Source: Neorhodopirellula pilleata (lineage in GTDB: Bacteria > Planctomycetota > Planctomycetia > Pirellulales > Pirellulaceae). From it: a stretch of DNA of 64,000 bases. This document shows positions 3,918 through 63,726 of the stretch, piece by piece (the stretch's first letter is position 1; every line of letters begins with the position of its first letter). The translations under genes and the position numbers were made by a program. The notes under the pieces are model-generated. The model searched no databases. It saw only the letters and a list, made by a program, of their open reading frames with translations, and was not told where the DNA came from. Location of the stretch: positions 547,502 to 611,501 of the forward strand of contig NZ_SJPM01000001.1 in NCBI RefSeq assembly GCF_007859915.1, given 5' to 3'.

Positions 3918-5719
3918 CGGCGACAAGCTTCACACCGAACATCGCCGAGATCGATCCTGAACAATTGCCGATACCGGAGCACAAGCTGCACGGGTGGACG
4001 CACTTTGCGGGGCTGTACGCAGGTGAGCATGTCGCGGCGACAGAATTTGTCATTGGAGCGACATTCGTTGCCCTCGGTGCAACGACGATGGACATTCTCG
4101 TCGGCTTGTTGATCGGGAATGTCCTTGCCATTTTAAGCTGGACACTGATTACGACGCCGATCGCGGTGCAAACACGCCTAAGTCTTTACACCTATCTGCA
4201 CAAGATCGCCGGCGACTCGATGAGCGATCTGTATAACGCCGCCAACGTGCTGATCTTTACGGTGATCTCAGCTGCGATGATCACGGTCTCCTGCACCGCG
4301 GTTCGATTGCTGTTTGACATTCCCGCTCAATTGGAATGGTATCCGACCAGCAGCCTGTTCGTGTTGGTTGTCCTTGGCGTCGGCATGATTGTGGTTCTGG
4401 TGGCGATGTATGGGTTCAATGCCGTCGCCGAGTTCTCGGGACTGTGCGGCCCGTGGCTGATCGTGATGTTCATCAGCGGTGCGTTGGCGCTTTTTCCTGC
4501 TCTAGCCGATGCGGTGATCGGACAGACTCAGCTCACTGGATTCGCTGACTTTATTGCGATCGGTGACCAATCCATCTGGACGGGTGTCAATAGCGCGGGC
4601 GACCCCGGCATTGGTTTGTTGGAAGTAATCGGTTTCGCTTGGGCAGCCAACACGATCACTCACTTCGGTCTGATCGACATGGCGTTATTGCGTTACGCCC
4701 GGAAAACGGTGTACGGACTTTGCACCAGTGCCGGCATGTTGTTTGGCCACTACATCGCCTGGATCGCTGCTGGCATCATGGGTGCGGGCACCGCCGTCCT
4801 GCTCAAGTCAACGATCGTTGAACTCGATCCCGGCGACGTCGCTTACCGAGCATTGGGATTGTCGGGCTACGTCATCGTCATCGTTGCCGGATGGACGACC
4901 GCCAACGCGAACCTGTACCGCGCCGGCCTCGCCGCCCAAGCGATCTTCCATCGGCATTCACGAAAGAAAGTCACCTTCGCCGTCGGTGTCGCAACGGTCG
5001 CGATCGCGTGCTTCCCGTTTGTTTACAAACAGATCTTACCGCTGCTGACCTACGCGGGGTTGATTGTCGTGCCCGTCGGCGGAATCGTCTTTGCCGAGCA
5101 CGTCATCTTTCCACGAATCGGGCTGACTCGATATTGGTCCAAGTACCGCGAGCTTCGTAGCGGACGAGGTGACAAGTCTCCCGCCGAAGGACTCGCATCT
5201 TCGTCCACCAAGGTCGGGTTCGCCGACAAGCTCGCCACCGCGAACAAGGCGGCAATCGCATCATGGGCCATCGGCTTGGTGTTTGGGTTTGGACTGAATT
5301 ATCTGCAAGTGATGTCGTTCTTCTACCTGTTCCTTCCGACCTGGGCATTCACCATCGCCCTGTACACGTTCCTGGCAAGTCGATCCGGTGCGGCGGAAAG
5401 CTACCCGGCCGAAGAATCCGCCGAGCAAAAGTTGAACGTGGCGATCCGCGAATTCCAATCCGAACAAGCCATCGCCCAAGGTGAACCTGTCCACGACAAA
5501 TCGGTGTTTTCAAAAATCCTGCACACTGTCGGCTGGATCGCATTGGCGGTGACGTTGATTCAAGCATTGATTGTGATGTTCGGCAGCGGCGACATGGCCG
5601 CCTACGAACGCAACGTCGGCGTTTTCTACACCTGGGGATTTGTCTGCACGATCGTGTACTTCGGTTCCTCGTACTGGGCATTGCAACGCACGAAAAAACT
5701 TAACCGAATCCAAACATGA
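3914..5719 (+). CDS. NCS1-like purine/cytosine permease family transporter
   Basis: 601 residues with about twelve to fourteen hydrophobic segments. The start ATG at 3914 has an AAGGAG ribosome site 8 bases upstream and overlaps the DUF4956 stop by 4 bp. The layout (short cytoplasmic N-terminus, GEHVAATEFVIGATFVALGA, a helix with ANTITHFGLIDMALLRYA, and a Trp-Thr-Thr-Ala-Asn-Ala-Asn motif WTTANANLYRAGL) matches nucleobase:cation symporter-1 proteins of the APC fold, where the WTT-NAN element forms part of the substrate site. The C-terminal 150 residues carry a cytoplasmic loop and two extra helices, making it longer than typical NCS1 proteins. Coupling to a polyol-dehydrogenase gene suggests a substrate other than nucleobases is possible. 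Confidence 0.72.
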   Translation: MTATSFTPNIAEIDPEQLPIPEHKLHGWTHFAGLYAGEHVAATEFVIGATFVALGATTMDILVGLLIGNVLAILSWTLITTPIAVQTRLSLYTYLHKIAGDSMSDLYNAANVLIFTVISAAMITVSCTAVRLLFDIPAQLEWYPTSSLFVLVVLGVGMIVVLVAMYGFNAVAEFSGLCGPWLIVMFISGALALFPALADAVIGQTQLTGFADFIAIGDQSIWTGVNSAGDPGIGLLEVIGFAWAANTITHFGLIDMALLRYARKTVYGLCTSAGMLFGHYIAWIAAGIMGAGTAVLLKSTIVELDPGDVAYRALGLSGYVIVIVAGWTTANANLYRAGLAAQAIFHRHSRKKVTFAVGVATVAIACFPFVYKQILPLLTYAGLIVVPVGGIVFAEHVIFPRIGLTRYWSKYRELRSGRGDKSPAEGLASSSTKVGFADKLATANKAAIASWAIGLVFGFGLNYLQVMSFFYLFLPTWAFTIALYTFLASRSGAAESYPAEESAEQKLNVAIREFQSEQAIAQGEPVHDKSVFSKILHTVGWIALAVTLIQALIVMFGSGDMAAYERNVGVFYTWGFVCTIVYFGSSYWALQRTKKLNRIQT

Positions 5720-20545: not shown

Positions 20546-20617
20546 GGGCTGGTAGCTGAGACGGTCTAGCGGCGGTCTGAAGAACCGCAGACGAGGATTC
20601 GAGCGCCTCCCGGCCCA
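20546..20617 (+). tRNA. tRNA-Phe(GAA)-like, atypical T stem
   Basis: Acceptor GGGCTGG pairs with CCGGCCC (one G-U). D arm GCTG/TAGC, anticodon arm GCGGT-CTGAAGA-ACCGC with anticodon GAA. The T loop TTCGAGC is present, but the normally invariant 53:61 G-C pair is A and G, so the T stem has only four pairs. No CCA is encoded. First in a cluster of seven. Confidence 0.6.
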
Positions 20618-20675
20618 CTGACAAGGAAGATATGCGCCGACAGCAACCGCTGCGGCGATCGAAGCAACACAACAT

Positions 20676-20748
20676 CGGATACAGGTGCAGATGGAAGCAC
20701 GCCTGCTTTGGGAGCAGGAGGGTCTCGGTTCGACTCCGAGGTGTCCGA
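20676..20748 (+). tRNA. tRNA-Pro(TGG)
   Basis: Acceptor CGGATAC/GTGTCCG, D arm GTGC/GCAC, anticodon arm CCTGC-TTTGGGA-GCAGG (anticodon TGG), T arm CTCGG-TTCGACT-CCGAG. Position 8 is A rather than the near-universal T. CCA not encoded; a T-run follows. Confidence 0.72.
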
Positions 20749-20767
20749 CTTTTTGAAACGACAACAT

Positions 20768-20839
20768 GGTAGTCGAGGGCTGGTCGCCCAAATCCGCCTG
20801 ATACGCGGGTCGCGCTGAGTTCGATCCTCGGGGCTACCA
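20768..20839 (+). tRNA. tRNA-Ile(GAT)-like, atypical
   Basis: Acceptor GGTAGTC/GGCTACC, anticodon arm TCCGC-CTGATAC-GCGGG (anticodon GAT), T arm CTGAG-TTCGATC-CTCGG. Position 8 is G instead of T and the D loop is very short (GGGC-TGGTC-GCCC). Confidence 0.6.
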
Positions 20840-20928
20840 CTTGAAGTAGGTAACAGGTTTCAGGTCACAAGGATCAGGTAAACGAATCATGCAGACATTT
20901 TTGAAACGCATAGCCGCGACTGAACAGC

Positions 20929-21025
20929 GGGGCTGTGGTGTAACTGGCAGCATGACGGACTTCGGGCACCGACGCTTCAAGCGTTGGTCGTCGTGTAGGT
21001 GAGGGTTCAACTCCCTTCGGCCCCA
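20929..21025 (+). tRNA. 97-nt tRNA-like gene with an inserted hairpin in the anticodon region
   Basis: Acceptor GGGGCTG/CGGCCCC and T arm GAGGG-TTCAACT-CCCTT are good, and the D arm (GTGTAACTGGCAGCAT) is of the Gln/Glu type. The anticodon arm cannot be drawn normally: ACGGA followed by CTTCGGG has no partner at the usual place. Instead a 7-bp hairpin, ACCGACG-CTTCAAG-CGTTGGT, sits 3' of it and looks like a second anticodon arm with anticodon TCA. Either a pseudogene, a disrupted Gln-type tRNA, or an unusual tRNA; identity is left open. Confidence 0.45.
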
Positions 21026-21037
21026 TTGGCTACGCAT

Positions 21038-21110
21038 CGGCGTGTAGCTCAGGGGTGAGAGCGGCGTCCTTATAAGGCGACGGTCGCGGGTTCAATTCCC
21101 GCCACGCCGA
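21038..21110 (+). tRNA. tRNA-Ile(TAT)
   Basis: Acceptor CGGCGTG/CACGCCG, D arm GCTC/GAGC, anticodon loop CTTATAA (anticodon TAT, reading AUA), T arm GCGGG-TTCAATT-CCCGC. The anticodon stem has one mismatch at its base (27:43). Most bacteria read AUA with a CAT tRNA modified by TilS, so a TAT gene is unusual. Confidence 0.75.
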
Positions 21111-21138
21111 TTGAAACGAAACAACGACGACAACACAT

Positions 21139-21211
21139 GGGATTGTGGCAGACAAGGTAATGCATCGGACTCTTAATCCGAGCGATGTGAGTTCGATTCT
21201 CACCGATCCCA
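21139..21211 (+). tRNA. tRNA-Lys(CTT)
   Basis: Complete cloverleaf: GGGATTG/CGATCCC, D arm GCA-TGC, anticodon arm TCGGA-CTCTTAA-TCCGA (anticodon CTT), T arm GTGAG-TTCGATT-CTCAC. The best-formed member of the cluster. Confidence 0.82.
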
Positions 21212-21230
21212 CTTGAGACATTTTGAAACA

Positions 21231-21304
21231 AGCACTGATGGTCTAACGGCAAGACTCCTCCGTCGCGAGCGGGGTGATGCGGGTTCGATTCCGGCTCGGT
21301 GCTC
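21231..21304 (+). tRNA. tRNA-Arg(GCG)-like, degenerate
   Basis: Acceptor AGCACTG/CGGTGCT and anticodon arm CTCCG-TCGCGAG-CGGGG (anticodon GCG) are paired, but position 8 is A, position 33 is C instead of T, the T stem has a G-G mismatch and an extra T lies between T arm and acceptor. It ends 6 bp before the giant palindrome. Confidence 0.5.
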
Positions 21305-21309
21305 TTTAG

Positions 21310-21563
21310 CCCGCCTTATTCACCAAGCGCGCCTTTAGGGTAGAAACCATCGCGTGAAACGCTACGTTTATCGGTTCACTACAACCAACTCAAACGCAAA
21401 GCAGGATCACGCGATGGGTGAAGTACAACGTAACCTAGGTTACGTTGTACTTCACCCATCGCGTGATCCTGCTTTGCGTTTGAGTTGGTTGTAGTGAACC
21501 GATAAACGTAGCGTTTCACGCGATGGTTTCTACCCTAAAGGCGCGCTTGGTGAATAAGGCGGG
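21310..21563. repeat. Perfect spacer-less 254-bp palindrome
   Basis: Two 127-base arms are exact reverse complements with no loop; the centre is AACCTAGGTT at 21432-21441. The right arm contains the last codons and stop of the fucosidase fragment (21516-21563), so the left arm is a mirror copy of that gene end. Base pairing stops at 21309/21564. Long perfect palindromes are normally lost in bacteria, so a fold-back duplication, a recent event, or an assembly/amplification artefact must be considered. Confidence 0.97.
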
Positions 21564-22444
21564 ATCATACTTAACCGGCAGAGTCTTGTGATCCGGGTCG
21601 GCCAATAAGTAGGCTTTGGCGGGCTTGCCAACGATCCCGTTAAAGACAACGCCCTCTGGGTTCCATTTCATGACGTGAAGATAGACCGTCCGGTCCTTTT
21701 GGGTCATGGCTCCCCAAGGAAAATCGAAATCGACCGGGGAGTAGTCTGTGCCGTAGATCGACTCGCCGTTGAGCTTCATCCACTGGCCGATTTCCGCCAA
21801 ACGCTCGATTTCCTCTGGACAGAGTGTACCCTCTGGCATCGGTCCTACGTTAAGCAGGAAGTTCACTCCCCGTGCCGCGCTCAGCACCAGACGTTCGATA
21901 ACATCCTTGGTGCTCTTCCAGTTGGCGTCGTTTCGGTCGTAGCCCCAGTTAAGCCGCATCGTCATACAGGTTTCAACATCGCCTTCCATACGCCGAGGGG
22001 CAATGGTCCGGTCGGGCAGCGATTCGAAGTCGGCATACTTCTGCTTGTCCGTCGGCACCCGGCGACTGTAGAGTCGGCTGCAGATCACGGTGTTCGGCTG
22101 AAGCTCACGCACCCGCGCGCCTTGCCGGTCCGCTTCGATCACATCATTGCCACCGACATCAAACCACAGGACGGCCATCTCGCCATAGTTCGTCAGCAGC
22201 TCATCGAGTTGGTTCTCAACAAATTCAAGATACTCGTCGTTCGTCATCGTCCCTGGTTTGTTCCTCCCCCGACTCCGGTGGTACCAGTCCTTGAACTGCG
22301 AATAGTAAACACCAAAGTGCATGTCCTGCTTTTTGCACTCGTCCGCGAGTTCCTTGATGATGTCGCGTTTGAATGGCGTGGCGTCCATCACGTCGTAATC
22401 GGTATATTTCGTATCAAAGAGACAGAATCCATCATGGTGTTTCG
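21516..22444 (-). pseudogene. 5'-truncated alpha-L-fucosidase (GH29) fragment
   Basis: About 309 codons clearly match glycoside hydrolase family 29 from KHHDGFCLFDTKYTDYDVMD to the C-terminus. The catalytic-nucleophile segment AVLWFDVGGND and the LLNVGPMPEG motif are intact. The N-terminal part of the catalytic barrel, which should precede KHHDGF, is missing: upstream of about 22444 the frame turns into unrelated sequence (residues 1-39 of the open frame from 22559). The break lies about 110 bp from the transposase start at 22553, and the 3' end is inside the giant palindrome. GH29 enzymes release L-fucose and are common in planctomycetes that degrade sulfated algal fucans; this copy is probably inactive. 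Confidence 0.78.
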
Positions 22445-22552
22445 GGGGAAGACCATGGGGACATAGCACCGCAGAGGCTATTGACTTGGCACCCTGTAGC
22501 GGTAACCATGACCGGGTCGAGTTTGCTGAGTTGGTAACTATTGAGGTGCGTG

Positions 22553-23680
22553 ATGGCACGGATGAGTCGAGCGGAAGTTTTTGATCCGGGCGAAGTCGCG
22601 GTCGGACACGTGTTTAGCCGTACCGTTAGACGGTGTTTTCTCATGGGCGATGATCCTGTCTCTGGGAAGAACTTCGACCATCGCAAACGCTGGATCGAGG
22701 AATATTTGCAGCAATTCGCCGCGTATTTCGGTATCGATCTGCTTTGCTATAGTTTGCTAGCAAATCATTTTCATTTGATTCTTAGGTCTCGACCGGACGT
22801 CGTTGCGACTTGGAGCGATGAAGAAGTCGCCCGTCGTTGGATGATGCTGTGCCCCAACCATCGCAAGGCGGACGGGTCGCCGATGGAACCGACGCAGCCG
22901 GAAATCAACGCCATCGCCGGTTGTCCGGTGAAGCGTGAAGAGATTCGCCGTCGTTTGAGTGATCTGAGTTGGTGGATGCGGTTGCTGTGCCAGCGTGTGG
23001 CAATGCGAGCCAACCGTGAGGACGAAGAACACGGCCGCTTTTTCCAAGATCGATACAAGGCGACTCGGCTCACCGATGAGGCGTCTGTGTTGGCTTGTGC
23101 GGCTTATGTGGATCTCAATCCGATTCGGGCGGCGATGTGCGAGCGGATCGAAGACAGCGATTTCACCTCGGCTCAGCGGCGAATCCAAGCCGAGCATGAA
23201 GAAGTTCGCGAAACGCCACCCGACGAAGCGACACGTCACGAAACGCCACCCGACGAAGCCATGAGCGAGCGATCCGAACCGATCGCGAAATTGCGGCATC
23301 GTCGCGATTCGTTTCTCTCGCCTGTTTCGATCGACGAGCTGCTTGATCCGATCGGCCCGTGTGGCAGTGCCACGCCGGAGCGTTGCAGCGACAAGGGATT
23401 CTTAGCGATGTCGCTGGCGGACTACTTAGAGCTGTTGGACTGGACGGCCCGTCAGGCGGCCCCAGGCAAACGTGGCAAGACACCCGCAAATGTCCCGCCC
23501 CTTCTCCAGCGACTCGGTTTGGATCCAGCGTCTTGGTGTGAGTTGGTCAGCGACTTCGGCAAGCTGTTTTGCACCGTTGCCGGTAGTCCCGACAGTGTCG
23601 ACTCCATGCGGAGTCACGGCACTCATCGACGTTATCATTTGCGTCGGCGGGCACGCGAGCTATTCGCGGTCACGGACTAA
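22553..23680 (+). CDS. REP-associated tyrosine transposase-like protein (Y1_Tnp), copy 1
   Basis: 375 residues from the ATG at 22553, which follows GAGGTG. The HUH-type motif is LLANHFHLILRSRP (His-x-His), and the later RFFQDRYKATRLTDE and AYVDLNPIRAAM segments are the usual Y1-transposase/RAYT C-terminal core. The C-terminal 130 residues (LSLADYLELLDWTARQ onward) are specific to this planctomycete subfamily. Near-identical domain order to the gene at 29963, with the same RTVRRCFLMG and SGKNFDHRK motifs. RAYT proteins act on short palindromic REP elements; this genome region is rich in such palindromes. It contains a short repeated ETPPDEATRH/ETPPDEAM stretch. Confidence 0.85.
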   Translation: MARMSRAEVFDPGEVAVGHVFSRTVRRCFLMGDDPVSGKNFDHRKRWIEEYLQQFAAYFGIDLLCYSLLANHFHLILRSRPDVVATWSDEEVARRWMMLCPNHRKADGSPMEPTQPEINAIAGCPVKREEIRRRLSDLSWWMRLLCQRVAMRANREDEEHGRFFQDRYKATRLTDEASVLACAAYVDLNPIRAAMCERIEDSDFTSAQRRIQAEHEEVRETPPDEATRHETPPDEAMSERSEPIAKLRHRRDSFLSPVSIDELLDPIGPCGSATPERCSDKGFLAMSLADYLELLDWTARQAAPGKRGKTPANVPPLLQRLGLDPASWCELVSDFGKLFCTVAGSPDSVDSMRSHGTHRRYHLRRRARELFAVTD

Positions 23681-23701
23681 GGTCCGGGATCAGCTTCTTA
23701 T

Positions 23702-24346
23702 TTGCTTCAGCTCATCGGCCCAACAGGCCGATCGTGGATGAGGCATGCGCTTTTCTCATCGCAACCGCCGCCAGACCCGGCAAAACCAAAGCCGTCGAGG
23801 CTTCGGTGCAGGCGACTTTTGTTGAATCAGGGATGTAGCTTTGTTGAGCTACATGCGGATAGACTGGCAAAGTGTCGTGTCCCCAAGCTCCCCCGCGTAG
23901 AGCCGCGACCGGAGCAAGAATGCTGCGATGAGGCAAAGGCAGCGGGTATGTCAGATGGCGATGCGGGAGGTGTGGTGTGCTGCGATGGTCGTAAAGTGTC
24001 GTGCGTTTGGATTAGCACCGGCTATTTGATTGGTCACCCAGATCGCCCGACTGAACCAACTGCGATCAAGATCATTGATGAATGTGTCAAGAAGCATGAA
24101 GACACTCACCACGGACACATTGATGATTGCAAGGCAAAGGTTCCGTCTTTAGAGAGGCCTGATTTCAGCGCAGGCGTCGATGCGGACAAAGGCGAATGCG
24201 AGGCTTACAAAGCCGAAGAGAAGTGTATGAAAGGCAAAATAGTGAAATGCCGTGGTAGGCTGAATTGTGCAAATCAGGTCCGGCAAGTTTTAGAAATTCT
24301 TAAGAAGCGTAGAGATCGTCACTGCCGCGACTCCCTTAAACCCTAA
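23702..24346 (+). CDS. Cys-rich HExxH protein, orphan Rhs-tip-like module 1
   Basis: 214 residues in the open frame, but the first ~60 look like non-coding sequence read through, so the true start is unclear. The later part is Cys-rich (QECCDEAKAAG, GVVCCDGRKVSCVW) with KIIDECVKKHEDTHHGHIDDC, an HExxH zinc-binding pattern framed by cysteines. This arrangement is like exported metallopeptidase toxin tips at Rhs protein C-termini, and the gene directly precedes a small membrane-anchored protein (24371) and one copy of the 1.07-kb repeat. No Rhs core remains here, so it would be an orphan tip; the family name is not certain. Confidence 0.5.
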   Translation: MLQLIGPTGRSWMRHALFSSQPPPDPAKPKPSRLRCRRLLLNQGCSFVELHADRLAKCRVPKLPRVEPRPEQECCDEAKAAGMSDGDAGGVVCCDGRKVSCVWISTGYLIGHPDRPTEPTAIKIIDECVKKHEDTHHGHIDDCKAKVPSLERPDFSAGVDADKGECEAYKAEEKCMKGKIVKCRGRLNCANQVRQVLEILKKRRDRHCRDSLKP

Positions 24347-24370
24347 TGGTCTATTCAGGCAAAGCGAACA

Positions 24371-24685
24371 ATGAGCCGTGATTACTTTTTGACTCAGGTT
24401 CGGGTTTGTGTAGCAATGGCCCTAATTTTCCTGCTTATCGGGTATTGGATTTACGCTTCCCACCTGAGAACGAAGAACGTGAGTGTGCCTGAGTTGCTTC
24501 GCAAATCTGAATCCATTGTCATGGAACGCGAAAACTGGACGAGTTTCGAAATAGACCCGGAAGTCGATGTTTTGGCTGATGGATATGAGGTGTACGCACA
24601 CCGTGTCCCTCGGAGGCCTGGATCACATCGTATCTTGAGTTATGATTTAGAGGGCGAACTTACGAATTACTCGCGCGGGCGTTAG
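24371..24685 (+). CDS. Small membrane-anchored protein, candidate partner of module 1
   Basis: 104 residues. One N-terminal transmembrane helix (VRVCVAMALIFLLIGYWIYA, residues 10-29) and an outside domain of about 70 residues (NVSVPELLRKSESIVMEREN). It starts 25 bp after the HExxH gene. Position and topology fit an immunity protein guarding against a periplasmic toxin, but no family is recognised and the call is inferred from arrangement only. Confidence 0.5.
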   Translation: MSRDYFLTQVRVCVAMALIFLLIGYWIYASHLRTKNVSVPELLRKSESIVMERENWTSFEIDPEVDVLADGYEVYAHRVPRRPGSHRILSYDLEGELTNYSRGR

Positions 24686-24786: not shown

Positions 24787-25852
24787 GTCCAATCAAGAGA
24801 AGAATAGGAACCAGCCTATTCTGGCGGGTCATGACGGAGCGGTGGCACGACTGGAAACTTTCCTGGTTTGCCTGGGTGACGCAGCGTGCTCAGTGTGACT
24901 AATAGAAAGCGGTCACTTTTGCTTTGCCGAAGTCTTTGAGAAGTTTGCCCGCGGCGGCGTGGTAGACACGTCGGAGCGTGATTTCGATGATGCGGTGACG
25001 CTTTGCTTGAGCCGGCGCGTGCGGCGATCCCAACGCAGTTGGTGATTCTGAAAGCGAGTGAGGTGGATTCGTTGGGTGCGTGCGTTGAATCATGGTGGTG
25101 GACGCGGTTTCGTGGATACCGTGGCAGTGGCTGGACGGGGTGTGCCTGCGTGAGCATCCAAGGCGGCTTGCGAGCAGAAGTGCGACGGCATGCCGGCGGG
25201 GCGGTTGCGAGGCGCGACGGCAAGTTCACCGACTAAGTACGCCAACACCAGACGCAGCCACGGCATGAAGTGCATTGCCTGAGCGCCCGTCAGTCGACCG
25301 TGCACCACCATCGGTGTTTCGCAGTGACTGCAACGAACCCGATAAGACGTCTGACCCTCACGCTCACCAGAAAAGTCGGCTGCAATGTGATCCAGGTCGC
25401 GAGGAGGCTCGCGCCGGAGTCAGACGCGGGATTCGGGATTGACAGACGGTTGAAACCCAAATCCCGCGTTTGCCCCTTGCGAAGCAACTTTCCCGGGCTT
25501 GAGCAACTTGTTCCTCTACCCTTACGCTGAAGGCGTTGTTAGCTATTAGCCGGTGGTCGAGCGAAGCGAGTACCACCGGACAACAGAACGCCACATCTCC
25601 TTTGACCCCGAACGGGGTCGCAGCACATTCACTCCGGATGCTGCGACCCCGTTCGGGGTCGACGTTCATTCATTTCTTCGCAATCCACAGGTGCGCTGCG
25701 CGACCTGTGGCTAATCGCCTGGATCCCTTCGGGATGGTTGAGACAAGATTGCCGAGCAGCGGTTTTGATGTTTGAGAGGCTGACGGTGGGGTGAGGACTC
25801 ACTTCGGAATCTTCCTGCCAGTAAACGGATGACTTAATAAGCGATCCAATCT
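24787..25852. repeat. Repeat A: ~1.07-kb direct repeat, first copy
   Basis: From GTCCAATCAA to CCAATCTA this segment matches 27941-29020 along almost its whole length with scattered substitutions and small indels. Minus-strand frames contain conserved pieces (MHFMPWLRLVLAYLVGELAV) broken by frame changes, suggesting an eroded coding sequence. Copy A lacks the 23-bp-arm palindrome present in copy B and ends in the same Rpn-gene remnant as copy B. No gene is called in the 1.5 kb from 24686 to 26188. Confidence 0.85.
25604..25660. repeat. Perfect 22-bp inverted repeat inside repeat A
   Basis: Arms at 25604-25625 and 25639-25660 read GACCCCGAACGGGGTCGCAG... and its complement around a 13-base loop. 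The matching region of repeat B (about 28703-28759) has a slightly mutated version. Confidence 0.75.
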
Positions 25853-27260: not shown

Positions 27261-27908
27261 ATGCGTGCACTTCTAATCCCGATCTGCTTGATGCACTTGG
27301 TTGTTTCTTCATGCTGCGTCACGACGGCAGATGAACTGATACCACGTCGTCCGAAGAGATTCAACGATCTGAAAACGCAGACATTCGCTTTGGGACGTTA
27401 TGAGAGCTACCTTTTCAAACCTACTGACCGACTGATCTTTATCGTCGGAAAGGCGAGTGCAAGCGAAAGCAATCGGTCCGCAGTCGGGGAAAATATTGAG
27501 CTAGAGCATCCGAACGGCGATGTCGTTTTTGTGCACAGTGGTCCTGGTATCGCTGTCGATCCAAATGATGAGATAATATGTGTCTTTCACGAGGACAGCG
27601 TGCCCGCTGATTGGCACTATGATCCCGAGGGCGGGCTGCTGGTTCTAATTCAAGACATCAGTAGTTCGCGTAAGGCGAGCTACCAAGTGAAGATACTTTC
27701 AGCTGACTTGCAGATGGCACAGAATCTGACCAACGAATTTCAGCGAGGCCTTCGTAATTTGGACATCGGACATGGAGATCGCGTGAACACTTCAATTTTC
27801 GACCGAGAGAAAAGAGTTCTTGAGTTGAGATTTAGATCTGGCGTGGTCGTAGAAGCCTTTTTCTCTAGTGATCACGTTGAAGTCGGGCTCGCACCGGGGT
27901 CCAGCTAG
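27261..27908 (+). CDS. Exported (lipo)protein, candidate immunity partner of module 2
   Basis: 215 residues from the ATG at 27261, one base after the Rhs fragment stop, so tightly linked to it. The N-terminus MRALLIPICLMHLVVSSCCV is a signal peptide with a lipobox-like VSSC. The mature part is mostly polar with beta-strand-like stretches (ENIELEHPNGDVVFVHSGPG, EIICVFHEDSVPADWHYDPE). An exported partner suits a tip acting outside the cytoplasm. The longer frame from 27165 is spurious. No family is recognised. Confidence 0.6.
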   Translation: MRALLIPICLMHLVVSSCCVTTADELIPRRPKRFNDLKTQTFALGRYESYLFKPTDRLIFIVGKASASESNRSAVGENIELEHPNGDVVFVHSGPGIAVDPNDEIICVFHEDSVPADWHYDPEGGLLVLIQDISSSRKASYQVKILSADLQMAQNLTNEFQRGLRNLDIGHGDRVNTSIFDREKRVLELRFRSGVVVEAFFSSDHVEVGLAPGSS

Positions 27909-27940: not shown

Positions 27941-29020
27941 GTCCAATCAAAAGAAGAATAGGAACCAGTCTATTCAGGGTGGTCATGACTGAGCGGTGGC
28001 ACGGCTGGAAACTTTCCTGGGTGACACAGCGTGCTCAGTGTGACTGATAGAAAGCGGTCACTTTTGCTTTGCCGAAGTCTTTGAGAAGTTGGCAGGCGGC
28101 GGCGTGGAAGACACGTTGGAACGTGATTTCGGTGATTTGGTGACGCTTTGCTTGAGCCGGCGCGTGCGGCGATCCCAACGCAGTTCGTGATTCTGAATGC
28201 GAGTGAGGGGGATTCGTTGGGTGCGTGTGTTGAATCATGGTGGTGGACGCGGTTTCGTGGATACCGTGGCGGTGGCTGGACGGGGCGCGCCGGCGTGAGC
28301 ATCCAAGGCGGCTTGCGAGCAAAAGTGCGACGGCATGCCGGCGGGTCGGTTGCGAGGCGCGACGGCAAGTTCACCGACTAAGTACGCCAGCACCAGACGC
28401 AGCCACGGCATGAAGTGCATTGCCTGAGCGCCCGTCAGTCGACCGTGCACCGCCATCGGTGTTTCGCCGTGACTGCAACGAACTCGATAGGACGTCTGAC
28501 CCTCACGGCGGAGGCTCGCGCTGGGATCAGACGCGGGATTCGGGATTGACGGACGGTTGAAATCCGAATCCGGAGTTTGACCTTTGCGAAACACCTTCCC
28601 GGGCTTGAGCAATTTGTTCCGCTCCCCTTACGCGTTAAGCGTTATTAGCCGGTGGTCGAGCGAAGCGAGTACCACCGGACAACAGAACGCCACATCTCCT
28701 TTGGCCCCGAACGGGGACGCAGCACATTCACTCCGGATGCTGCGCCCCCGTTCGGGGTCGACGTACATTCATTTCTTCCCAATCCACAGGTGCGCTGCGC
28801 GACCTGTGGCTAATTGCTTGGATCCCTTCGGGATCGTTGAGACGAGATTGCCGAGCAGCGGTTTTGATGTTTGGGAGGCTGACGGTGGAGTGAGGACTCA
28901 CTTCGGATTCGTCTTGCAGTTCTGGCAGGAAGATTGAGGGCAGGGAAATTGTTGCCGATCTTCTTCCTGCCCTCAATCTTCCTGCCAGTAAACGGATGAC
29001 TCAATAAGCGAACCAATCAA
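27941..29020. repeat. Repeat B: ~1.07-kb direct repeat, second copy
   Basis: Second copy of the block at 24787-25852, starting GTCCAATCAA and ending CCAATCAA. It runs into the Rpn-type gene, whose in-frame 5' remnant (SISEPINPFSYQEF) is within the repeat end; copy A carries the matching start of that remnant. No gene is called within it. Confidence 0.85.
28922..28988. repeat. Perfect 23-bp inverted repeat at the end of repeat B
   Basis: Arms CTGGCAGGAAGATTGAGGGC.. (28922-28944) and its complement (28966-28988) around 21 bases. It sits exactly at the point where the Rpn-type reading frame begins, 1 bp before the first in-frame stop, and is missing from repeat A. Confidence 0.85.
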
Positions 29021-31437: not shown

Positions 31438-31614
31438 CCAAAGCTTAAACTTAAACCTCAACTTATACTTAAACCCGCTCCTCATACGACGACCGACGGA
31501 TTGAGATTCGTGCTCGGTTTAGGTTTAGGTTTAGGTTTAGGTTTAGGTTTAGGTTTAGGTTTAGGTTTAGGTTTAGGTTTAGGTTTAGGTTTAAGTTTAA
31601 GTTTAAGTTTAAGA
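31438..31614. repeat. (GGTTTA)13 telomere-like array with inverted counterpart
   Basis: Thirteen exact GGTTTA units (31516-31593) are followed by three AGTTTA units (31594-31611). Upstream at about 31440-31475 lie TTAAACTTAAACC units in opposite sense, so the whole can fold into a long hairpin. It begins the 514-bp gap after the transposase and ends 14 bp from the flhB stop; the rest of 31115-31437 shows no gene. Confidence 0.9.
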
Positions 31615-31627
31615 GCCGACCCGCCGC

Positions 31628-45784: not shown

Positions 45785-46018
45785 TCAAAATCTAATTTTA
45801 GGGTGAGCCGAACGCGCTAGCGTCGGGCGTTGAGCAATGCCCGCGGCTAGCGGGCTGTTGATTTAATCGTAACCCGAAGCGTCAGCGAGGGATTCATCAC
45901 CATTAAGTCCTTTGTATGTATCCCTCGCTCACGCTTCGGGTTTCGATGAGGACTAAATCAACAGCACGCTAGCGCCGTCGGCTCACTTCACTAACCCTAA
46001 TTTTAGGGTTTGACGAAG
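45785..46018. repeat. Nested palindromic element with REP-like core
   Basis: Outer arms (GTCAAAATCTAATTTTAGGG and its near complement at 45994-46018) enclose GCGCTAGCG-containing arms, then TGTTGATTTAATCGTAACCC/..GACTAAATCAACA, and an inner pair AACCCGAAGCGTCAGCGAGG/CCCTCGCTCACGCTTCGGGT. The inner core is shared with the elements at 58211 and 63361. It is immediately after the Mrp operon. Confidence 0.82.
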
Positions 46019-54453: not shown

Positions 54454-54736
54454 GTGGCATAGGCTTCCAGCCTCTTTATACCCCACATCTTTTTGACCCC
54501 CACGAGCTCGTCTCGTGGGTGAATAAGGTTCGCAAGCTAGACAACGACGCCCTCCCAACCTTCCGATTTTCACTTGTGCTCGCCGCTTCAAGCGGCGAGC
54601 ACAAGTGAAAATCGGAAGGTTGGGCGAATTGCGGCTCGTGTCTAGCTTGCCAACCTGGGCTTCCTGTCAGACGAGCTGGCAGGGGAGCATTACACAAGGA
54701 CTTGTGGGGTATAAAGAGGCTGGAAGCCGATGCCAC
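54454..54736. repeat. Composite palindromic element between hisC and hisB
   Basis: Outer arms of about 34 bp (GTGGCATAGGCTTCCAGCCT.. and ..AGGCTGGAAGCCGATGCCAC) enclose a perfect 35-bp hairpin with a 1-base centre (54554-54624, core GCTCGCCGCTTCAAGCGGCG). Additional stem pieces (GTCTAGCTTGC-type) lie between. No coding frame crosses it. It looks like a non-autonomous mobile element. Confidence 0.85.
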
Positions 54737-63161: not shown

Positions 63162-63360
63162 GGGAAAAGGGTTCCGAAGGGACGAGTGAAGAGAAGGTGG
63201 GGAGTGCAATCCAAGAGTATAATTGGGCTCGAAAATGGGTGTCAACAAAATTGGCGATTTTGCGAGCCTCCACGCAACGGCCTTATACGCACCGAGGAAT
63301 ATAACGGTTGTGCCGATTGCCCGCCTTCGAGTGCAATCGGCCACAACGCGATAACGCCGT

Positions 63361-63726
63361 GTTGATTGAATCGTAACCCGACGCGTCAGCGAGGGATTGA
63401 ACGCCATTAAATCCTTTGTAAGTATCCCTCGCTCACGCTTCGGGTTACGATGCAAACCAAATCAACCGCCCGATAGCGCCGTGTTGATTGAATCGTAACC
63501 CGACGCGTCAGCGAGGGATTGAACGCCATTAAATCCTTTGTAAGTATCCCTCGCTCACGCTTCGGGTTACGATGCAAACCAAATCAACCGCCCGATAACG
63601 CCGTGTTGATTGAATCGTAACCCGACGCGTCAGCGAGGGATTGAACGCCATTAAATCCTTTGTAGGTATCCCTCGCTCACGCTTCGGGTTACGATGCAAA
63701 CCAAATCATCGGCCCGATAGCGGCGT
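63361..63726 (+). repeat. Three tandem 122-bp REP-like units
   Basis: Units begin at 63361, 63483 and 63605 (GTTGATTGAATCG). Each unit is itself an inverted repeat: CGTAACCCGACGCGTCAGCG with CGCTCACGCTTCGGGTTACG, enclosing ATTAAATCCTTTGTA. Units one and two are nearly identical; the third diverges at its end. The longer frames that cross it (with NPKRERG/TRSVSEG strings) are spurious. The rest of 63162-63807 shows no gene. Confidence 0.93.

What the first reader, a model, noticed from the sequence alone, without database searches (positions are those of the whole stretch)
21310..21563. Perfect 254-bp palindrome with no spacer
Both 127-base arms are identical mirror copies, with the centre AACCTAGGTT. 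The right arm contains the real end of a fucosidase gene and the left arm duplicates it. Such palindromes are cut by SbcCD and lost in most bacteria. Its position between a tRNA cluster and a truncated gene suggests either a recent fold-back (template-switch) event, a hairpin end of a former linear element, or a chimera from assembly or amplification.
Basis: seen in the sequence. Interest (0 to 1): 0.72.

Follow-up and report, generated by a model that had tools for sequence, protein, structure and literature searches.

The report
Assembly artefact at transposon ends
The perfect DNA palindrome is most likely not in the living cell: assembly software appears to have glued together, head to head, the first 127 bases of two separate copies of one jumping gene, so it is an artefact.

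Summary
The palindrome is in the window exactly as described (21310-21563, two 127-nt arms, 100% complementary, no spacer), but it is very probably an assembly artefact. Each arm is the first 127 bp of a 1,849-bp IS1380-family insertion sequence. One copy is intact in the assembly; 16 other left ends and 15 other right ends are cut after 119-129 bp, at contig ends, N gaps or abrupt joins. Of 55 contig ends examined, 25 share terminal sequence with another, always at least 127 bases; 127 is the largest SPAdes k-mer (PMC5481147). Five-base target duplications show that the arms belong to two insertions. The one beside tRNA-Arg has its other end on contig C14: nine loci from eight relatives continue from this tRNA array into the C14 flank, none into the fucosidase side. 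The one in the fucosidase gene has its other end on C2, where the reading frame resumes and matches three of three orthologues. Five of seven other abrupt joins butt an IS end against another contig-terminal repeat of about 127 bp. The palindrome is the case where both ends are the same k-mer. No reads were available, so this is a strong inference.

The parts
21310..21436 (+). Left (5') 127 bp of an IS1380-family IS, copy A (inserted in the tRNA array); identical to the first 127 of the 1849 bp of the intact copy L017:3008-4856
21437..21563 (-). Left (5') 127 bp of another copy of the same IS, copy B (inserted in the fucosidase gene)
21436..21437 (.). Inferred false join between two contig ends that finish on the same 127-mer in opposite orientation
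   Evidence: inference
21305..21309 (+). TTTAG, 5-bp target duplication of copy A; partner TTTAG at the end of contig C14 (L043), chosen over C56 by synteny in relatives
21564..21568 (-). ATGAT (read on the - strand), 5-bp target duplication of copy B; the only matching right end is C2:958171-958296 (L046)
20546..21304 (+). Part of a long tRNA array (Phe, Pro, Ile, Ile, Lys, Arg by ARAGORN, plus one Rfam tRNA match at 20929-21025); 12 further tRNAs lie on the last 3126 bases of C14
21564..22443 (-). Fragment of an alpha-L-fucosidase gene (PF01120); its 3' part continues on C2, its 5' part is missing (boundary about 22443, where a multi-copy repeat begins)

Best explanation
The palindrome is a misassembly. 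The genome carries about 17 copies of a 1,849-bp IS1380-family insertion sequence. A de Bruijn-graph assembler working at k=127 got through only one of them, so contigs end on the 127-mer at the left or right edge of the IS. A later scaffolding or gap-closing step butted such ends together, here without a gap. At 21436/21437 it joined two left ends, one from an IS in a tRNA array and one from an IS in a fucosidase gene, and one k-mer meeting its own reverse complement reads as a perfect spacerless palindrome. Shown: arm = IS end, truncation near 127 nt across the assembly, partner flanks on other contigs, empty sites in relatives, similar joins elsewhere. Inferred: the assembler and the step that made the join, and the absence of the palindrome from the real chromosome.
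For: Arm = first 127 bp of the intact IS L017:3008-4856, TTCAA on both sides; transposase NF033539, E 6.6e-84. Of 17 left ends, 12 hold exactly 127 IS bases (the window's two among them), 2 hold 125, 1 holds 122, 1 holds 121, 1 is intact; 7 of 17 are at a contig end, 4 before 100 N, 3 at abrupt joins, 2 in the palindrome. Of 16 right ends, 7 hold 125, 5 hold 127, one each 119, 123 and 129, 1 is intact; 8 are at a contig end, 3 beside N, 4 at abrupt joins. For the 9 right ends under 127, the deficit equals a flank length shared with another copy in 9 of 9 cases, for the 4 short left ends in 3 of 4 (a pattern seen before it was counted). Of 55 of 146 contig ends, 25 share at least 20 terminal bases with another; all 25 share at least 127, 13 of them without any IS1380 end. 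Target duplications: 15 pairs of a possible 16; 0 of 20,000 random draws of the same composition reached this (mean 5.9, maximum 12). tRNA side: 9 of 9 relative loci (8 genomes, one a single contig) match the C14 flank and none matches window 21564-24563 or the other 15 right flanks at E 1e-6; 8 of 9 align through the insertion point. Fucosidase side: the C2 flank, the only one with ATGAT, continues the frame and matches 3 of 3 orthologues at their 3' end. Of 7 abrupt joins, 5 (L012, L014, L042, L047, L050) put an IS end against a stretch that is also the terminal 125-127 bases of another contig.
Against: No reads, coverage or assembly graph were available, so the join was not tested directly; the assembler is unknown and k=127 is inferred. 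TTTAG occurs on two right ends (C56 and C14), and the choice of C14 rests on relatives. L018 (left, TTGAC) and L044 (right, ATGAG) have no partner, and TTTAA occurs on two left ends but one right end. C56's left end is one base short of the simple rule, and most left ends keep 127 IS bases although they share flank bases with other copies. Abrupt joins L018 and L044 were not explained by the contig ends at hand. Two other right flanks also gave weak matches in one orthologue locus, L039 (22 aa, E 9e-5) and L050 (62 aa, E 1.5e-10), both beyond the fucosidase gene.
Confidence: 0.96

Rival explanations
1. A real rearrangement: two IS copies came to lie head to head and their interiors were lost, leaving two 127-bp ends as a true palindrome.
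For: The assembled contig reads that way; IS copies can mediate deletions and inversions (recalled).
Against: Both flanks find partner right ends with the matching 5-bp duplications elsewhere in the assembly; leaving exactly 127 bases on both sides would have to coincide with the length at which 29 other ends of this IS are cut (119-129) and with the overlap of unrelated contig ends.
Confidence: 0.02
2. A fold-back or template-switch duplication in the cell, or a hairpin telomere of a former linear element.
For: Perfect symmetry without spacer.
Against: The arm is the multi-copy end of an IS, and the symmetry stops exactly at the IS edge on both sides, next to different target duplications. 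No search for telomere resolvases was made.
Confidence: 0.01
3. A chimeric molecule made during library amplification rather than by software.
For: Would also give a head-to-head join of IS ends (inference).
Against: Does not explain the cut near 127 bases shared with contig ends and N gaps.
Confidence: 0.01

Closest known systems
IS-induced misassembly in short-read (de Bruijn graph) bacterial genomes
   Same: Contigs end at IS copies, share terminal k-mers and are wrongly joined there. The Unicycler paper (PMC5481147; passages seen) gives 127 as the largest SPAdes k-mer, mentions overlapping sequences at contig ends made by SPAdes, and reports that in simulated hybrid assemblies SPAdes made many errors in Shigella genomes rich in IS-associated repeats.
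   Different: Here the wrong join happens to unite two ends of the same kind, which gives a perfect palindrome. Whether SPAdes was used here is not known.
IS1380-family insertion sequences
   Same: Transposase matching NF033539, 18-bp terminal inverted repeats with one mismatch, 5-bp target duplications.
   Different: Nothing unusual seen. Relatives of the transposase at 63-80% identity (best segment) lie in records named Rhodopirellula sallentina SM41, R. europaea 6C and Aporhodopirellula aestuarii.

Membership tests
IS1380 family insertion sequence (the element behind the arms) | IS1380-type DDE transposase | tested here: met
   NF033539 281.9 bits against a cut-off of 180; PF13701 E 1.7e-70
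IS1380 family insertion sequence (the element behind the arms) | Short terminal inverted repeats | tested here: met
   First 18 bases match the inverted last 18 with one mismatch in the intact copy (read)
IS1380 family insertion sequence (the element behind the arms) | Target duplication of 4-5 bp (family value recalled) | tested here: met
   TTCAA on both sides of the intact copy; 15 matching 5-mers among 17 left and 16 right ends
Genuine long palindrome in the chromosome | Both flanks contiguous in the cell | tested here: inconclusive
   Not testable without reads; synteny and target duplications speak strongly against
Hairpin telomere | Telomere resolvase and the end of a linear replicon | not tested
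   No search was made; the arm's identity as an IS end made it unnecessary

The most novel reading that the evidence does not exclude
Some cells really carry a truncated head-to-head pair of IS ends as a stable 254-bp perfect palindrome between the tRNA array and the fucosidase gene.
Probability: 0.02. Interest if true: 0.4.

Novelty: not a real feature. Interest (0 to 1): 0.05.

Why it matters
It matters as a warning: a perfect spacerless palindrome whose arm equals an assembler's k-mer length should first be tested as two identical contig ends glued head to head. It also means that in this record the gene order across 21436/21437 is very probably wrong: the tRNA array continues on C14 and the fucosidase gene on C2.

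Tried and rejected
I first took the arms for long terminal inverted repeats of an element, because both orientations matched across the assembly; the intact copy showed that the arm is only the left end and that the inverted repeats are 18 bp. A reading of the flanks as a 3-bp TNA duplication was dropped for the 5-bp duplication seen at the intact copy.

Literature: searches on palindromes and chimeric contigs, IS1380 with target duplication or Planctomycetes, SPAdes with insertion sequences and contig ends and IS1380 with ISfinder terms were seen as listings only; of these papers I looked into one, PMC5481147, by passages. 'tRNA array' with 'Rhodopirellula' gave 0 papers. The genome-contig scan gave 3 loci, used only for names; one search says that records of the window's own genome may be left out.

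Parts not used: contig starts were fetched for 40 of 73 contigs, and 15 further ends came from the IS loci, so 55 of 146 contig ends were compared; 3 of the 15 IS ends (L021, L023 start, L049) showed no long terminal identity there because they stop a few bases off the others. Of 13 genomes, the window's own and four relatives with weak tRNA matches only (G001, G002, G006, G008) were left out; a second match in G004 was not fetched. In one search the abrupt joins were compared with 54 loci at contig ends, not with all ends.

Full report
Observation. The palindrome is exactly as described: arms 21310-21436 and 21437-21563, 127 nt each, 100% complementary, no spacer.

What the arm is. A search of the window's own assembly (8,502,319 bases, 73 contigs) found the arm at 15 further places. 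Of the 17 arms, seven stop at the end of a contig, four are followed by 100 N, three run into other sequence, two make up the palindrome, and one continues into a complete element. That copy, L017:3008-4856, is 1,849 bp long, has 18-bp inverted ends with one mismatch, has TTCAA on both sides, and encodes a 514-aa transposase that matches the IS1380 model NF033539 at E 6.6e-84 and PF13701 at 1.7e-70. Related elements lie in three of twelve same-genus genomes among the 40 genomes (G005, G009, G012; the window's own is listed besides). In G005 five contig ends stop 91 bases into a related element, so the cut length differs between assemblies.

Why 127. Twelve of 17 left ends hold exactly 127 IS bases, the other cut ones 121, 122, 125 and 125. 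The right end of the IS occurs 16 times, and 15 of these are cut at 119-129 bases, at contig ends, N gaps or abrupt joins. Where fewer than 127 IS bases are present, the deficit equals a number of flank bases shared with another copy in 9 of 9 right ends and 3 of 4 left ends. This pattern was noticed before it was counted, and most left ends keep 127 bases although they share flank bases, so it is support, not proof. Among 55 of the assembly's 146 contig ends, 25 share terminal sequence with another end, always at least 127 bases; 13 of these 25 have nothing to do with this IS. This is what a de Bruijn graph with k=127 leaves behind. [quoted passage not shown] Which assembler was used here is not known.

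Whose ends they are. Five-base target duplications pair left and right ends: 15 of a possible 16 pairs, against a mean of 5.9 and a maximum of 12 in 20,000 random draws of the same composition. The window's left arm follows TTTAG; the right arm, on its own strand, follows ATGAT. So the arms are left ends of two different insertions. ATGAT has one partner, on C2 at 958171-958296. Joined there, the fucosidase frame continues (PVKYD, then ASGHITTIEVPAIAPDP) and aligns with three of three close orthologues. When all 16 right flanks were compared with the three orthologue loci, only the C2 flank matched the 3' end of the gene, in all three; L039 and L050 gave matches in one locus (L066) beyond the gene. 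TTTAG has two candidate partners, C56 and the end of C14. Nine loci from eight same-genus genomes carry the tRNA array, and all nine match the C14 flank; none matches the fucosidase side of the window or another right flank at E 1e-6. Eight of nine align through the insertion point. The last 3,126 bases of C14 hold 12 more tRNA genes, in an order like that of the relatives. So the window's two halves belong to different places in the genome.

The same fault elsewhere. On C1 two right ends of the IS, of different insertions (TTGAG and ATTAG), face each other across N (27502-27627 and 27729-27854). Of the seven abrupt joins, five (L012, L014, L042, L047, L050) put a cut IS end against a stretch that is also the terminal 125-127 bases of another contig. 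The palindrome is the special case in which both butted ends are the same k-mer. The abrupt joins L018 and L044 were not explained by the ends at hand.

Limits. No reads were available. L018 (TTGAC) and L044 (ATGAG) have no partner, TTTAA occurs twice on the left and once on the right, and C56's left end is one base short of the simple rule.

Verdict. Very probably an assembly artefact made of two left ends of an IS1380-family element; not a fold-back event and not a hairpin telomere.

Noticed in passing
20546-21304, continued on L043 (C14 end): A long tRNA array: ARAGORN finds 6 tRNAs in the window and 12 more on the last 3126 bases of C14; six relative loci scanned hold 13-19 tRNAs each, in similar order. 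In this genome the array is split by the IS1380 copy. Related sequence also lies on C14 near 78.8-79.3 kb and 115.2-115.4 kb.
   Followed up: partly
22444-23890: A repeat of about 1.45 kb with eight further near-full-length copies at 94-97% identity and similar ends, encoding a 379-aa protein weakly like REP-associated tyrosine transposases (NF047646, 36.7 bits, below the cut-off of 80). It begins where the fucosidase gene is cut off; the missing N-terminal part has only distant matches (at most 54% identity) elsewhere in the assembly.
   Followed up: partly
54554-54624: A perfect 35-bp inverted repeat with a 1-nt spacer, inside a pair of 34-bp inverted arms at 54454-54487 and 54703-54736 (97%).
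   Followed up: no
63349-63726, with 45845-45978: Three copies, 122 bp apart, of a 134-bp reference repeat; a further copy at 84% identity lies at 45845.
   Followed up: no
31492-31623: A run of GGTTTA and AGTTTA units; a similar run lies beside the intact IS copy in L017 near 5050-5110.
   Followed up: no
24787-25818 and 27941-28917: Two direct copies of about 1 kb, 3.1 kb apart, with listed stretches at 85-93% identity.
   Followed up: no
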